From Spirochaetaceae bacterium (lineage in GTDB: Bacteria > Spirochaetota > Spirochaetia > Treponematales > Breznakiellaceae), in NCBI GenBank assembly GCA_031280115.1, contig JAITHF010000224.1, forward strand, positions 1 through 11,167: a stretch of DNA of 11,167 nucleotides, written 5' to 3'. The notes beneath the pieces were generated by a model. The model was not told where the DNA came from. It saw only the letters and a list, made by a program, of their open reading frames with translations, and made no database searches. Each line of letters begins with the position of its first letter. Position 1 is the first letter of the stretch. Position numbers and translations under genes: made by a program. Shown here in pieces: positions 4,383-11,167 of this stretch.

Positions 4383-5333
4383 TCAAGCCCCGCGCCGCCT
4401 CATGCCGGAGAGGAGGATGCAGCGGGCGTTCCGGCGTATGTTTTGGGGGCCGAGCCACGCCATTCCCAGGGCGGTCCCCTTGAACATACAGGCAAGCTCC
4501 CTGTCGGTCATGGCAAGGATACGGCGGGGGTCAATGCACGAGGGGAGGGAGCCTCTGCCGGTTGCAACGGCCTTGACCGCCTTTTGGTTGCGGACGCAGC
4601 GGTCTTGGCAGTCAGTACAGCCGTACAGCCGGTTTCCCCAGTGCCGCAGCACCGCTTCCGGCACGTCAAGGCCGTTGCCCGAAGCGTACCACTGGATACA
4701 GCGCTTGGTATCAATGGTTCCGTCCCCCCGCGCCGCGCCGGTGGGGCAGGCCGCGGCGCAGGGAGGCGGGTGGCCGCAAGAGGCGCAATAGCCCAAAGGC
4801 CCGGTTTCAGGGCTGTCCCCTGCAAGGGGGAAGGGCAGGGTCAGGGCCGCGATGATGCACAGGGAGCCTGCTTCAGGGGTAATGATAAGGCCGTTCCGCC
4901 CCAGCGCGCCGAGGCCGCAGGCCGCGGCCAGGGGCTTTTCAGGGACCGGCGAATTGCAGAGGATGCGAAAATCAGATTTCATGCCCCCATAGCGGGCGCG
5001 GAGGGTTTTGGCCAGGGCCTGGAGGCGCAGGACCCCTTCGCGGTAGTAGTTTCTTTGGGCAAACGGGGCCACGGCCCCGGGCGCGTCAGGAGGCGCCGCG
5101 CCGCCGCTGCCGTAGGGGAGCGCCGCTACAAGGAGCGCCGCGGCGCCGGGCCGGTAGTTCTCAGGGACAGACCCCGGCGGCTCATAGCCGGAGAGAAAAC
5201 GCGCCCGCGCAAAGCCCGCGTCCAGCGCCATTTCCCGAATCGCGCTTTGAGCGCGCGCTGGCTCGCAGCAGGCAGCCTTTACGGGGGGCTTGGGAGGTCT
5301 ATGACCCCCCGCATCCTCTTTAAACACAACCAA
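4383..5333 (-). CDS. QueG-family (epoxyqueuosine reductase-like) 4Fe-4S protein
   Basis: The QueG family reduces epoxyqueuosine to queuosine in tRNA using cobalamin and two 4Fe-4S clusters. Family marks here are the GLGALGRNGLIITPEAGS block, the first cluster segment CASCGHPPPCAAACPTGA, a partner CIQWYASGNG segment, the second cluster segment YGCTDCQDRCVRN, and the C-terminal FKGTALG..WLGPQNIRRNARCILL. The length of 316 is shorter than many QueG proteins, and there is no C-terminal HEAT-repeat extension. In family members I remember, an Asp lies in a VD/TD-x-x-PV motif before the GLG block; here the aligned stretch is LCNSPVPEK, with Cys in that place, so catalytic identity is uncertain. The start is also uncertain: the longest frame uses TTG 5333 (or GTG 5327), with the first 25 or so residues encoded by a dispersed repeat. 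The next start, ATG 5231, would cut into the conserved first helix (IREMALDAGF). Neither has a good ribosome site. Confidence 0.75.
   Translation of the reverse strand: MVVFKEDAGGHRPPKPPVKAACCEPARAQSAIREMALDAGFARARFLSGYEPPGSVPENYRPGAAALLVAALPYGSGGAAPPDAPGAVAPFAQRNYYREGVLRLQALAKTLRARYGGMKSDFRILCNSPVPEKPLAAACGLGALGRNGLIITPEAGSLCIIAALTLPFPLAGDSPETGPLGYCASCGHPPPCAAACPTGAARGDGTIDTKRCIQWYASGNGLDVPEAVLRHWGNRLYGCTDCQDRCVRNQKAVKAVATGRGSLPSCIDPRRILAMTDRELACMFKGTALGMAWLGPQNIRRNARCILLSGMRRRGA
5196..5291 (-). repeat. 96-bp repeat, copy 1, covering the queG-like 5' coding region
   Basis: This 96-base block matches 8171-8266 with about four differences, in the same orientation. It covers the codons from KPPVKAACCEPARAQSAIRE to the ARARF segment of the queG-like gene. 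Its upstream side continues into the GC palindrome GGGAGGTC-TAT-GACCCCCC (5292-5310, one mismatch in the stem) and a GAGGATGC segment, the same module as in the direct repeats at 689-942. Confidence 0.85.
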
Positions 5334-5730: not shown

Positions 5731-5907
5731 ATGAGAAAAAGGCAGGATTGGTTTCAGCGCGCCCATACCGGCGCGCCGGTCATTAAGGCTCACCTCTGGG
5801 GTATCTCAAATAATTTTGCCCGGGAGTTCCGCCAATGTATGATAGAGGCGCAGGACACCCGTCATACGGCGCCCAGAGTATTTGAGGGAATATATGCGGA
5901 CTGCTGA
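5731..5907 (+). CDS. 58-codon ORF in frame with the radical SAM gene; possible broken or UGA-interrupted N-terminus
   Basis: ATG 5731 opens 58 codons ending in TGA at 5905-5907. It is too short to be obvious as a gene, but it is preceded by AAGGAG at 5711-5716 (14 bases before the ATG, longer than ideal). The product starts MRKRQDWFQRAHTGAPVIKA and ends RVFEGIYADC, with an amphipathic charged character like a helical protein domain. I recognise no family. It is in exactly the same frame as the radical SAM ORF that starts at TTG 5932, with no other stop between. If the UGA were a sense codon, a single 402-residue protein would run from 5731 to 6939. The radical SAM ORF has no ribosome site of its own, which favours a single ancestral gene. 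Alternatives are a separate small protein or a nonsense mutation. Confidence 0.45.
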   Translation: MRKRQDWFQRAHTGAPVIKAHLWGISNNFAREFRQCMIEAQDTRHTAPRVFEGIYADC

Positions 5908-5931
5908 AGAACAGGTGAAAAAAACATCCGT

Positions 5932-6939
5932 TTGGAACAGCAGCAGCAGCGCAAATGGGTTGAGGAACAAAAACAGGCAATCAAAACAGGCATGTATCCC
6001 TCACACTTTACCATGCCCCTTTCCCTTCAGTTTGAGCTTACCGGACAATGCAACCTAAAATGCCGGCACTGCTACAACCGGTCTGGAGAGCTTCCCCTTG
6101 ACGCGATGACCGCAGAGCGCTGGAAAAAACTCTCGAAAGAACTTGCAGCACACGGCGGCATCTTTGAATGTATTATTTCAGGGGGAGAACCCTTTCTCCT
6201 TGGGGAAGACCTTTTTGCTATTATGGATATACTCCATGACGACGGCGCGATATTTTTGGTAATAACAAACGGGTTTCTTATAACCGAAAAAATAGTGCGC
6301 CGCCTCCAGAAATACCGGTACCGCTGGCTGCAAATTTCGATTGACGCATCAAACGCCCAGGCCCATGACGCTTTGAGGCGCGTTCCGGGAAGCTGGGAAA
6401 AAGCGGTACACGCCGCGCTGAACGCCGCTGACGCGGGGATTCCTCTGGCCATAGCCAATACGATTATTCCCGAAACTATAGAAGACCTGCCTGAAATGGC
6501 GCGTCTTGCGTATTTCTGCGGCGCCGCGTCGCTTATCACCGGCGAAGTATTTCCAAGCGGTCGGGGCGCGATAGACGAGGCATTGCTCTTGAACAACGAA
6601 GAGAGAGCGCGGCTTTGGCACATCATCGAAGAGCAGCGGGTCATTTTTCAAGGACGCATGAAGATACAGCGCTCCATGTCAAACCGGTCCCAGCTTGAAG
6701 GCGTATCTGATTTACCCGCAGCAGGCGCCATTATCCGCCCCAATGGGGATATACGATTGGATTGTACCGCCCCGTTTGTCATAGGCAATGTGGCTAACGC
6801 TTCTTTTTATGAGCAATGGCAAAAAAGCCGCGGCTGCTGGCAGGATAAACGGGTGAAAGAGTACATTGAATCGGTGGATTGGTATTCCGGAAAAAGCAAT
6901 TTACATAAAAATCATGTTGAAGGAGATATTTTATTATGA
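5932..6939 (+). CDS. Radical SAM peptide-modifying enzyme with reduced SPASM-like C-terminus
   Basis: The 335-residue frame has the radical SAM signature CNLKCRHC (Cys40, Cys44, Cys47) that binds the 4Fe-4S cluster cleaving S-adenosylmethionine. It also has GGEP (84-87), TNG (112-114) and ISIDAS (135-140). Residues about 265-299 (IIRPNGDIRLDC, then GNV..ASFYEQW) match the shape of a SPASM domain, but most auxiliary-cluster cysteines are missing: only Cys278 and perhaps Cys302 remain. With two small peptides, a PqqD-like protein and a cysteine-cluster protein directly downstream, it probably modifies the peptides; the chemistry is unknown. The start is uncertain: TTG 5932 has no Shine-Dalgarno sequence, ATG 5991 (residue 21) only a weak one, and an in-frame upstream ORF is separated by one UGA. 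The stop overlaps the first peptide start (ATGA). Codons look more AT-rich than in the flanking operons. Confidence 0.88.
   Translation: MEQQQQRKWVEEQKQAIKTGMYPSHFTMPLSLQFELTGQCNLKCRHCYNRSGELPLDAMTAERWKKLSKELAAHGGIFECIISGGEPFLLGEDLFAIMDILHDDGAIFLVITNGFLITEKIVRRLQKYRYRWLQISIDASNAQAHDALRRVPGSWEKAVHAALNAADAGIPLAIANTIIPETIEDLPEMARLAYFCGAASLITGEVFPSGRGAIDEALLLNNEERARLWHIIEEQRVIFQGRMKIQRSMSNRSQLEGVSDLPAAGAIIRPNGDIRLDCTAPFVIGNVANASFYEQWQKSRGCWQDKRVKEYIESVDWYSGKSNLHKNHVEGDILL
6920..6925 (+). promoter_or_regulatory. Strong ribosome binding site of peptide 1
   Basis: AAGGAG followed by ATATTTTATT leads to the ATG at 6936. The site lies within the last codons of the radical SAM gene. The same AAGGAGATAT motif precedes peptide 2. 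Such strong sites, against none at the radical SAM start, suggest the peptides are made in excess over the enzyme. Confidence 0.75.
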
Positions 6940-7190
6940 AGAATATGAAAAAAGCGTATATCAAACCTACGCTGTTTTACGGGAAAGAACCGGCGGGGCT
7001 TATTCCTGTAGTAGCAGGAGTAGCCGCGGTCCTTGGGGTATCACAAGCTGTGGCTGGACTTGCTTTAGGAAGCGCAGCAGGACTTGCCGCTGTAGGCGGC
7101 GCCACTGCGCTTGCCAAGAAAGCGGGGAATGACAGGGTTGGCCCCTGGGAACGCCTGCCCGCCCTTGATATTGTCGATGCGTATGTATAA
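6936..7190 (+). CDS. Candidate RiPP precursor peptide 1 (84 aa, Gly/Ala-rich)
   Basis: A small protein whose ATG overlaps the radical SAM stop. Three zones are visible. The N-terminus has AYIKPTLFYGKEPAGLIP; a Y-x-KP motif of this sort is common in leaders recognised by PqqD-like proteins. The middle (about 25-60) is hydrophobic and Gly/Ala-rich with a G-x3-G zipper at 41-45-49. The C-terminus is LAKKAGNDRVGPWERLPALD then IVDAYV. It contains no cysteine, which excludes thioether (sactipeptide-type) products, but it has one Trp (71) in W-E-R. Peptide 2 shares both ends and differs in the middle, as expected of a leader, variable core and follower, or of a membrane-active pair. I recognise no named family; the precursor role is inferred from position and pairing. 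A start at Met4 is also possible. Confidence 0.7.
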   Translation: MKNMKKAYIKPTLFYGKEPAGLIPVVAGVAAVLGVSQAVAGLALGSAAGLAAVGGATALAKKAGNDRVGPWERLPALDIVDAYV

Positions 7191-7197
7191 AGGAGAT
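7190..7197 (+). promoter_or_regulatory. Ribosome binding site of peptide 2, overlapping the peptide 1 stop
   Basis: AAGGAGAT begins on the last base of the TAA stop of peptide 1 and lies five bases before the ATG at 7203. It is nearly identical to the site before peptide 1, consistent with duplication of the whole unit including its translation signal. Confidence 0.75.
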
Positions 7198-7202
7198 ATG
7201 TT

Positions 7203-7469
7203 ATGAGCAGAATATATGTAAAACCGGCGATACTCGTAAATACAGAACCTGCGGGGATTATTCCGGCTATACTTGGAGTGGGAATGGCGTTAGGTTCGGC
7301 GTTGGGTATGGCGGCTTCCGCCTCCGCCGCTTTAGGCGGGCTTGCCGTAGGCGCCGCTGCCGGCGCCGCCGGCGCTGGTGTTGCCGCACTTGCCAAGAAA
7401 GCGGGGAATGACAGGGTTGGCTCCTGGGAACGCCTGCCCGCCCTTGACGCTGTTGAAGCGTACTCATGA
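7203..7469 (+). CDS. Candidate RiPP precursor peptide 2 (88 aa, glycine-zipper)
   Basis: A paralogue of the peptide just upstream. It shares the N-terminal pattern IYVKPAILVNTEPAGIIP and an almost identical C-terminal zone, LAKKAGNDRVGSWERLPALD (63-82), followed by AVEAYS. The middle (25-60) is longer and richer in Gly and Ala, with G-x3-G zippers at 27-31-35 and 46-50-54; such zippers pack transmembrane helices in many proteins, including class IIb bacteriocin pairs. No cysteine; one Trp (75) again in W-E-R. DNA for the C-terminal zone is also almost identical to peptide 1, so the duplication is recent or kept alike by gene conversion. The stop overlaps the PqqD-like start (ATGA). No double-glycine export leader is seen and no exporter is adjacent. 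Confidence 0.7.
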   Translation: MSRIYVKPAILVNTEPAGIIPAILGVGMALGSALGMAASASAALGGLAVGAAAGAAGAGVAALAKKAGNDRVGSWERLPALDAVEAYS

Positions 7470-7759
7470 TCGCATTTTCACACCTGGCGGACTATATTCC
7501 TGTCCGCAAAGACCTGAAACTGCGGATTGAAGGGGCCATCGGCATTGTTTCTAACGCCTCTGACTATCGAATTGACTATCTCAATGAAAGCGCGCTGGCG
7601 GTTTTCCAACTTATTGACGGCAAGAGAAACGTTGCGGAGATCGCCCGCTGTTTTAGAGAAGAAACAGCGGCTGCCGAAGCTGTTTTTGAGCATGATTTAG
7701 TGGAGCTGCTAAGGAATTTCCAGTGGCAGAAACTGATCGTTTTGAAAAAGAAAGTTTGA
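7466..7759 (+). CDS. PqqD-like peptide-recognition protein (RRE)
   Basis: The 97 residues match the PqqD fold: an N-terminal beta part (VRKDLKLRIEGAIGIV, then YRIDYLNESALAVFQLIDG) and helices NVAEIARCF and AVFEHDLVELLRNF leading to a final strand (KLIVLKKK). In known systems a PqqD protein binds the precursor leader and brings it to the radical SAM enzyme. Here it follows two candidate precursors and shares ATGA with the second, implying coupled translation. It lacks its own strong ribosome site. The family call rests on the pattern YLNESALAVFQLIDGKRNV and on size; the role is inferred from the neighbours. Confidence 0.8.
   Translation: MIAFSHLADYIPVRKDLKLRIEGAIGIVSNASDYRIDYLNESALAVFQLIDGKRNVAEIARCFREETAAAEAVFEHDLVELLRNFQWQKLIVLKKKV
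7711..7716 (+). promoter_or_regulatory. Ribosome binding site deciding the GTG start at 7723
   Basis: AAGGAA lies six bases before GTG 7723, inside the end of the PqqD-like gene, and supports a non-ATG start with a 37-base overlap. Confidence 0.55.
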
Positions 7760-8013
7760 GTTTCGTCTGTGAAAAGTGCGGCGAATGCTGCCGTCATATC
7801 GAAGCGTTTGTTGGTTCATTGCCGTATCAAGAAAACGGCGTATGCGGTTATCTCAAAGGGGATCTCTGCTCGATATATGAAAAGCGCCCTGATTTCTGCG
7901 ATTTCAAGCGGGCATACGGCTATTTTAAAGACAGTATGACCGAAGCCGAGTATTTAGAGAAAACCCGCTGTTTTTGCGAACTGCTTAAATGCTTAAAGAA
8001 GAAAAGAACATGA
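7723..8013 (+). CDS. YkgJ-family cysteine-cluster protein (putative metal-binding)
   Basis: This 96-residue protein has ten cysteines. The N-terminal FVCEKCGECCRHI (Cys16, 19, 22, 23) followed by LPYQENGVCGYLKGDLCSIY (Cys41, Cys49) and EKRPDFC (Cys59) is the CxxCxxCC signature of the YkgJ family, thought to chelate zinc or iron. Three more cysteines (83, 85, 90) end the protein. Its gene overlaps the PqqD-like gene by 37 bases in another frame, so it belongs to the same operon. Family members occur in many settings and their chemistry is mostly unknown. In this operon it may be an iron-dependent second modifying enzyme or a metal/cluster donor to the radical SAM protein; that role is a guess. 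It is the last gene of the locus; no clear terminator follows. Confidence 0.82.
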   Translation: MAETDRFEKESLSFVCEKCGECCRHIEAFVGSLPYQENGVCGYLKGDLCSIYEKRPDFCDFKRAYGYFKDSMTEAEYLEKTRCFCELLKCLKKKRT

Positions 8014-8170: not shown

Positions 8171-8266
8171 AAAACGCGCCCGCTCAAAGCCCGCGCCCAG
8201 CGCCATTTCCCGAATCGCGCTTTGAGCGCGCACTGGCTCGCAACAGGCAGCCTTTACGGGGGGCTT
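8171..8266 (-). pseudogene. Duplicated 5' fragment of the queG-like gene (96-bp repeat, copy 2)
   Basis: The minus strand encodes VKAACCEPVRAQSAIREMAL then GAGFERARF and a TAG stop, against VKAACCEPARAQSAIREMAL then DAGFARARF in the intact queG-like gene: about 92 of 96 bases are identical. The rest of the gene is absent. The fragment starts exactly at the end of the LPP20-like lipoprotein gene, whose TAA stop (8265-8267) overlaps the repeat edge. The copy is therefore a dead gene fragment carried along with a dispersed repeat. Confidence 0.8.
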
Positions 8267-11035: not shown

Positions 11036-11083
11036 GATAATTTATACTATACCAACAGAGCGCGGCGCAAAGACCGGTTTTTT

Positions 11084-11167
11084 GGTTCCCCAAATAAGTT
11101 TTTTGGGTACCCAAATAAAGTTACTGGTTCCCCAAATAAGTTCCGCGGTGACCCAAAAAACTATCCT
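11084..11167. repeat. Tandem repeat with exact 21-bp period, running off the window
   Basis: Four consecutive 21-base units begin at 11084, 11105, 11126 and 11147. The shared part is GGTTCCCCAAATAAGTT; the second has GGGTACCCAAATAAAGTT and the fourth is degenerate (GGTGACCCAAAAAA). The CCCAAA core recurs at precisely 21-base steps, two helical turns, so the cores face the same side of the DNA. It may be an operator or iteron-like array, or a minisatellite; the end is not visible. Confidence 0.8.

What the first reader, a model, noticed from the sequence alone, without database searches (positions are those of the whole stretch)
5731..8013. Compact radical SAM RiPP-like locus with two precursor-like peptides, a PqqD-like protein and a YkgJ protein
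Seen: radical SAM signature, two tandem homologous small proteins with strong ribosome sites, a PqqD-like protein and a ten-cysteine YkgJ-family protein, with start/stop overlaps at most junctions. Known: PqqD-type proteins bind precursor leaders for radical SAM maturases. Inferred: a peptide modification system. The combination with a YkgJ protein and cysteine-free Gly/Ala-rich peptides is not one I can name, so it may be an undescribed class.
Basis: partly seen in the sequence, partly recalled or inferred. Interest (0 to 1): 0.82.

Follow-up and report, generated by a model that had tools for sequence, protein, structure and literature searches.

The report
Radical-SAM peptide-modifying operon with hydrophobic precursors
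This is a small bacterial operon that very probably chemically alters two ribosome-made, water-shunning peptides; related operons turned up in other gut and rumen bacteria, and the peptides match no named family that was checked.

Summary
Window 5932-8013 encodes a radical SAM enzyme, two homologous peptides, a discrete PqqD-type RRE and a YkgJ-type cysteine-cluster protein. Two spirochaete relatives keep the order. Profile scans found the cassette in Selenomonadaceae, Synergistales and a Ruminococcus MAG: 39 distinct contigs, with YkgJ in 31 of the 35 where its place can be read.

In 189 genomes of one family, two precursor profiles gave 29 and 28 hits (partly the same peptides), all within about 1 kb of the RRE. 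Precursors share a YxxPx[hydrophobic] leader. The RRE keeps the Asn and Asp that hold that motif in a solved complex. The middle is Ala/Gly/Val/Ile/Leu-rich.

The enzyme has a SkfB-like Twitch fold without a conserved auxiliary-cluster Cys set; CxxxCxxC, C80 and C278 persist.

Best reading: a RiPP cassette, with epimerisation the likeliest but unproven chemistry. None of the 25 best NCBIfam models listed reaches its cut-off. No paper in the held library joins YkgJ, radical SAM and RiPP.

The parts
5932..6939 (+). Radical SAM maturase, 335 aa from TTG 5932; CxxxCxxC at C40/C44/C47, conserved C80 and C278, Twitch-like C-terminal fold without a conserved auxiliary-cluster Cys set
   Evidence: N-terminal stretch from ATG 5894 lies in another frame
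6936..7190 (+). Precursor peptide A, 84 aa (81 from ATG 6945): leader YIKPTL, 39-residue uncharged middle, tail WERLPALDIVDAYV
7203..7469 (+). Precursor peptide B, 88 aa: leader YVKPAI, 46-residue uncharged middle, tail WERLPALDAVEAYS
7466..7759 (+). Discrete RRE (PqqD family), 97 aa; N40 and D77 (family-invariant) align with an Asn and an Asp of LppB
7723..8013 (+). YkgJ/CxxCxxCC protein, 96 aa from GTG; eight Cys invariant in 25 of 25 cassette members aligned
6920..6925 (+). AAGGAG ribosome site of peptide A
   Evidence: sequence
7190..7195 (+). AAGGAG ribosome site of peptide B
   Evidence: sequence
5196..5291 (+). Left copy of a dispersed repeat bracketing the operon (96% identical to the right copy); not a functional part as far as known
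8171..8266 (+). Right copy of that repeat

Best explanation
A RiPP maturation cassette. The discrete RRE binds the YxKPx[ILV] leader of peptides A and B and presents them to the radical SAM enzyme, which modifies the long Ala/Gly/Val/Ile/Leu-rich middle. Leader and tail act as recognition ends. Because the enzyme keeps only the SAM-binding cluster motif plus two conserved cysteines, the likeliest chemistry is redox-neutral C-alpha epimerisation (L to D residues) with a protein cysteine as hydrogen donor, as in proteusin epimerases. YkgJ most likely serves as a metal or Fe-S accessory that reduces or matures the enzyme. Supported by data: cassette, co-occurrence, leader/RRE pairing by conservation, absence of a conserved cluster-ligand set. 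Inferred: which residues change, the epimerisation, the role of YkgJ, and the product's activity.
Confidence: 0.55

Rival explanations
1. The enzyme oxidises or cross-links the peptides (C-C, C-O or C-N bonds, or dehydrogenation), with YkgJ taking the place of the missing auxiliary clusters as electron acceptor.
For: YkgJ accompanies the enzyme in 31 of 35 readable cassettes and has eight invariant Cys in 25 of 25 aligned. Intermolecular electron transfer is documented for the radical SAM enzyme PapB (abstract of PMC10470005). The nearest fold is the thioether former SkfB. Spirochaete tails carry conserved residues such as E, L, P and often W, R, Y.
Against: In the two precursor alignments the only invariant aromatic column is the leader Tyr (13 and 15 rows), and only 29 of 97 precursors contain Cys. 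The enzyme has no conserved Cys after C278 that could correspond to SkfB's C385/C387, and C351 aligns with D277.
Confidence: 0.3
2. The peptides are membrane proteins or signals that are modified only at the tail or merely escorted; the hydrophobic middle is a membrane anchor, not the modified core.
For: Uncharged 39- and 46-residue middles; 60 of 97 precursors have a 19-residue stretch with Kyte-Doolittle mean of 1.6 or more. Tails are conserved ([ASGTN]L[EDTQ] in the last 16 residues in 52 of 97 versus 10.5 in shuffles) and more alike within a locus. No exporter recognised.
Against: 37 of 97 precursors lack such a stretch. RRE plus radical SAM is a maturation pair.
Confidence: 0.2
3. A cofactor pathway like PQQ, in which the peptide is a scaffold for a small molecule.
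For: PqqD-type RRE, and NCBIfam similarities to NirJ2, AhbD, mycofactocin and PqqE models.
Against: Those models score far below their cut-offs. One to six divergent precursors per locus suit peptide products rather than one cofactor. By eye I saw no conserved Glu-Tyr-type pair.
Confidence: 0.05

Closest known systems
SkfB (sporulation killing factor sactisynthase, PDB 6efn)
   Different: SkfB has a fused RRE and an auxiliary cluster held by C351, C385 and C387 (passages of PMC6231123); here the RRE is separate, D277 aligns with C351, and C278 is the only conserved Cys of the C-terminal region. Sactipeptides need precursor Cys; peptides A and B have none
Proteusin radical SAM epimerases (PoyD, OspD, PlpD, AvpD)
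   Same: Only the radical SAM cluster plus a conserved Cys; RRE; Val and Ile among the target residues (passages of PMC8326336)
   Different: Discrete RRE and a short YxxP leader instead of the long nitrile-hydratase-like one; the review calls them leader-independent; no PoyD-type model is among the 25 listed of 76 and 79 hits. Not compared directly
Epipeptide epimerase EpeE/YydG
   Different: EpeE has two Fe-S clusters (passages of PMC8326336)
Lasso and LPP discrete RREs (TbiB1, LppB)
   Same: YxxPx[LVIFA] leader motif and the Asn/Asp contacts
   Different: The LPP paper's text has no 'radical SAM' (0 occurrences); I saw no lasso enzymes in these loci, without a dedicated search

Membership tests
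RiPP with RRE-dependent maturation | Short precursor genes clustered with a modifying enzyme and an RRE | tested here: met
   27 of 27 rSAM-anchored loci with an RRE have YxxP peptides; 57 of 57 precursor-profile hits lie at the RRE
RiPP with RRE-dependent maturation | Leader binds the RRE | tested here: inconclusive
   Motif and contact residues conserved; binding not measured
RiPP with RRE-dependent maturation | Post-translational modification of the peptide | not testable with these tools
   needs mass spectrometry
Sactipeptide/ranthipeptide | Cys in the precursor core for thioether bonds | tested here: not met
   Peptides A and B have no Cys; 29 of 97 in the family have any
SPASM/Twitch auxiliary-cluster enzymes | Conserved Cys ligands for auxiliary cluster(s) | tested here: not met
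   Only C278 is conserved in the C-terminal region (28 of 30); PF13186 12.1 bits vs cut-off 21.5
Proteusin-type radical SAM epimerase | Radical SAM cluster only, plus a strictly conserved Cys | tested here: inconclusive
   C80 in 29 of 30 and C278 in 28 of 30; not placed relative to the substrate
Proteusin-type radical SAM epimerase | D-residues in the product | not testable with these tools
   needs chiral analysis
PQQ biosynthesis | PqqD and PqqE equivalogs | tested here: not met
   TIGR03859 30 bits vs cut-off 46; TIGR02109 69 vs 381
YkgJ/CxxCxxCC (PF03692) | Pfam gathering score | tested here: met
   24.4 vs 23

The most novel reading that the evidence does not exclude
A new RiPP class in which a Twitch-fold radical SAM enzyme that has lost its auxiliary cluster installs many D-residues along a roughly 40-residue Ala/Gly/Val/Ile/Leu core, turning paired peptides into membrane-inserting helices of the polytheonamide type, with the separate eight-cysteine YkgJ protein acting as the redox partner that restores the catalytic cysteine.
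Probability: 0.17. Interest if true: 0.87.

Novelty: new variant of a known kind. Interest (0 to 1): 0.66.

Why it matters
It outlines, by searches anchored in turn on enzyme, RRE and precursor, a radical SAM and RRE peptide-modification family with 97 precursor-like peptides in spirochaetes, Selenomonadaceae, Synergistales and others. It also ties the poorly understood YkgJ family to a concrete pathway. If the chemistry is epimerisation it would offer a route to D-residue peptides with a separable RRE, and would make two open questions testable: how the catalytic cysteine of radical SAM epimerases is regenerated (called unclear in passages of PMC8326336) and what YkgJ proteins do.

Tried and rejected
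The large protein database was switched off, so the search of peptide B there could not be made. A genome-contig scan with peptide B found nothing; the scan with the rSAM alignment worked. The phylum search with the peptide profile gave G000 and one weak hit, G312 at E 9.6e-4, in 392 genomes sampled; G312 was not followed. Phages (window rSAM, E limit 1e-10) and plasmids (L028 rSAM, E limit 1e-20) each gave one distant match, 27.8% and 28.8% identity. YkgJ exclusivity was rejected: hits in 11 of 197 relatives of the window's genome and in 77 of 189 genomes of the L028 family; the 18 best of the latter are cassette ones. Of 12 non-cassette YkgJ regions fetched, my script marked YkgJ in five: four beside genes that look by eye like riboflavin genes, one in another setting. 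In seven it marked none, for a reason I did not pursue. Of six regions around YkgJ relatives in spirochaete genomes, none showed this rSAM by eye. The YkgJ model was too poor to use (pLDDT 63.7), so no fold search was made with it. A link between C80 and YkgJ presence was looked at and not supported. Defence: PADLOC matches of the enzyme are to viperin models over the shared core. Four weak RRE places (L112-L115) were dropped from counts; L112 and L113 show a related rSAM and RRE with no peptide found by my filter. Peptides were picked with a leader-motif and hydrophobicity filter, so the leader frequency in the 97 is circular; controls are the opposite strand and the genome-wide profile searches. 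Folds missing from the list are not excluded. The 18 papers naming YkgJ were seen as a listing only, as were those except the ones quoted as passages or abstract.
Full report
WHAT IS THERE. Window 5932-8013 (+) is a compact operon: radical SAM enzyme (5932-6939), peptide A (6936-7190), peptide B (7203-7469), PqqD-type RRE (7466-7759) and YkgJ/CxxCxxCC protein (7723-8013). Three of the four junctions overlap and AAGGAG sites precede both peptides. The enzyme's N-terminal stretch is split over two frames at an A-run; relatives have it in one frame. This was left as found.

HOW FAR IT REACHES. Among 197 genomes (own included), peptide B and the RRE are found in the same three, with the same gene order; YkgJ relatives are in 11 of 197. 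Contigs of the same lengths are titled Treponema sp. and Spirochaetaceae bacterium MAGs. Identities to the window: rSAM 74 and 74%, RRE 65 and 62%, YkgJ 59 and 53%. A scan of GTDB species contigs with the rSAM alignment gave 30 loci, 29 strong and one (L052, E 2e-4) dropped: Selenomonadaceae/Selenomonadales including Centipeda periodontii, Synergistaceae/Synergistales, a Ruminococcus MAG, Clostridium algifaecis and a Roseburia MAG, besides spirochaetes. With the window that makes 30 loci: RRE in 27 and YkgJ in 25. L023 ends at the enzyme; L047 and L048 show neither RRE nor YkgJ nor peptides; L035 and L049 show no YkgJ. Each of the 27 loci with an RRE has YxxP peptides.

FURTHER TESTS. Searching by RRE instead gave matches in 26 of 189 genomes of the L028 genome's family (a Selenomonadaceae MAG by title) and 10 of 81 of the L030 genome's family (Synergistales by title): 37 places, four weak ones dropped. 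The rSAM is adjacent in 32 of 33, the other sits at a contig end, and all 28 fetched have peptides. Merging both searches gives 39 distinct contigs; YkgJ can be judged in 35 and is present in 31 (absent in L035, L049, L110, L111; contig ends in L023, L106, L107, L120). Searching by precursor gave 29 hits in 21 of 189 genomes and 28 hits in 17 of 189, each on a cassette contig within about 1 kb of the RRE; some peptides are hit by both profiles. YkgJ, in contrast, is found in 77 of 189 genomes; the 18 best hits are cassette ones and most others are elsewhere.

ANATOMY OF THE PRECURSORS. I gathered 97 precursor-like peptides of 51-102 residues from 37 loci, chosen by an N-terminal Y-x-x-P motif and a hydrophobic stretch. 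Of the hits of the both-strand scan, 68 were on the operon strand and 2 on the other. Tail motifs exceed shuffled tails: [ASGTN]L[EDTQ] in 52 of 97 against a mean of 10.5, maximum 21. Type I (mostly between enzyme and RRE) has the consensus GYAAGRAxTKA and KLPxL; type II (mostly after the RRE) ends IDSxHTxxLTxRK. Spirochaete tails read RLPALDxVEAY and some synergistete ones MPGLExVLAYE, a likeness across phyla. In the window and in G062 the last 72 bases of genes A and B are far more alike within a genome (63 and 70 of 72) than to the same gene in the other genome (42 and 41 of 72). The first 72 bases do not show this: the three A genes share 55-58 of 72 with each other against 42-46 with the B gene of the same genome; B genes share 41-52. 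This looks like gene conversion of the tail; G001 does not show it (42 of 72). Within-locus similarity exceeds permutation for leader and tail, not for the middle, in the pooled set and in the Selenomonadaceae-family set, but not significantly in the Synergistales or spirochaete sets alone. I read the ends as recognition parts and the middle as the modified or functional core; that is inference.

THE RRE. PDB profile matches are PqqD, TbiB1, TfuB1 and the RREs of entries 9x8z and 9x90, which are LppB and PbaB1. In the alignment to 9x8z the family-invariant Asn and Asp (N40 and D77 in the window protein) fall on an Asn and an Asp 37 residues apart. I identify these with LppB N33 and D70; the numbering shift of the construct is my inference. 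N33 fixes the kink at the leader Pro and D70 holds the leader Tyr; N33A almost abolishes and D70A reduces complex assembly (passages of PMC13381572). The leader motif here fits the [Y/W]xxPx[L/V/I/F/A] motif quoted there.

MECHANISM. Reactions that end by oxidising the peptide radical commonly use auxiliary clusters (general knowledge; suggested for anSME and BtrN in PMC6231123). Proteusin epimerases have only the radical SAM cluster, an RRE and a critical Cys, and epimerise residues such as Val and Ile (passages of PMC8326336). By that analogy epimerisation is my first choice (about 0.4 given that it is a RiPP system); oxidation or cross-linking with YkgJ as electron partner is second (about 0.3). 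Against the analogy, the same review calls those epimerases leader-independent, and SkfB, the nearest fold, makes thioethers. The abstract of PMC10470005 documents intermolecular electron transfer for PapB, which makes a separate redox partner plausible. YkgJ's eight invariant Cys (25 of 25) could hold two metal centres; this is unproven and its model was too weak to judge.

ORIGIN. The operon's G+C is 0.51 against 0.60 for the rest of the window. It is bracketed by two direct copies of a dispersed repeat that are 96% identical to each other, while the other places listed are 76-91% (41 matches, a lower bound since 40 of 194 candidates were scored). The rSAM tree groups the four spirochaete sequences (100/100), with Synergistota and Bacillota rows interleaved around them; the program warns of long branches. 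Together these fit horizontal acquisition.

NOVELTY. In the held paper library no paper has YkgJ with radical SAM and RiPP, or 'cysteine cluster protein' with radical SAM and precursor peptide, or Selenomonas with radical SAM, RiPP and RRE. Thirteen papers on rumen, radical SAM, RiPP or Selenomonadaceae (three of four terms) were seen as titles and abstract starts, none evidently about this system. In the RRE survey PMC12710340 the words CxxCxxCC, Selenomon- and Synergist- do not occur. This is absence from those searches only. I rate it a new variant of a known kind (radical SAM/RRE RiPP systems), possibly a new class.

Noticed in passing
window 5196-5291 and 8171-8266: Direct copies (96% alike) of a dispersed repeat with at least 41 matches in the genome bracket the operon; operon G+C 0.51 versus 0.60 around it. 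Possible trace of mobility.
   Followed up: partly
window 5894-5932: N-terminal coding of the enzyme is divided between two frames at an A-run, unlike relatives; assembly error, alternative start or slippage cannot be told apart.
   Followed up: partly
window 7086-7183 and 7365-7462; L008: 3' ends of the two peptide genes are homogenised within a genome while 5' ends are not (G000 and G062, not G001).
   Followed up: partly
L027, L028, L030, L031, L033, L038-L040, L051, L118, L122, L123: Recurring cassette neighbours: DUF1232/YkvA (8 of 30 loci), LRAT domain (6 of 30), TerB-like (4 of 30); WYL-type regulator in 6 of 20. Only representatives were checked by Pfam. A link to a stress or conflict island is possible.
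   Followed up: partly
L126 5219-6847: A YkgJ relative in another spirochaete lies next to a protein matching candidate-defence model PDC-M40B (206 bits), with an LRAT gene nearby.
   Followed up: no
L047, L048: Relatives of the enzyme preceded by a second radical SAM gene, without RRE or peptides found and with C278 replaced by Gly: perhaps a different function.
   Followed up: no
L110, L111: Divergent cassettes with gene order peptide-RRE-rSAM, no YkgJ found, no C80, and a second Cys two residues after C278.
   Followed up: no
window 11062-11160: Units spaced 21 bases apart (four overlapping 36-nt copies) and a palindrome near the contig end.
   Followed up: no
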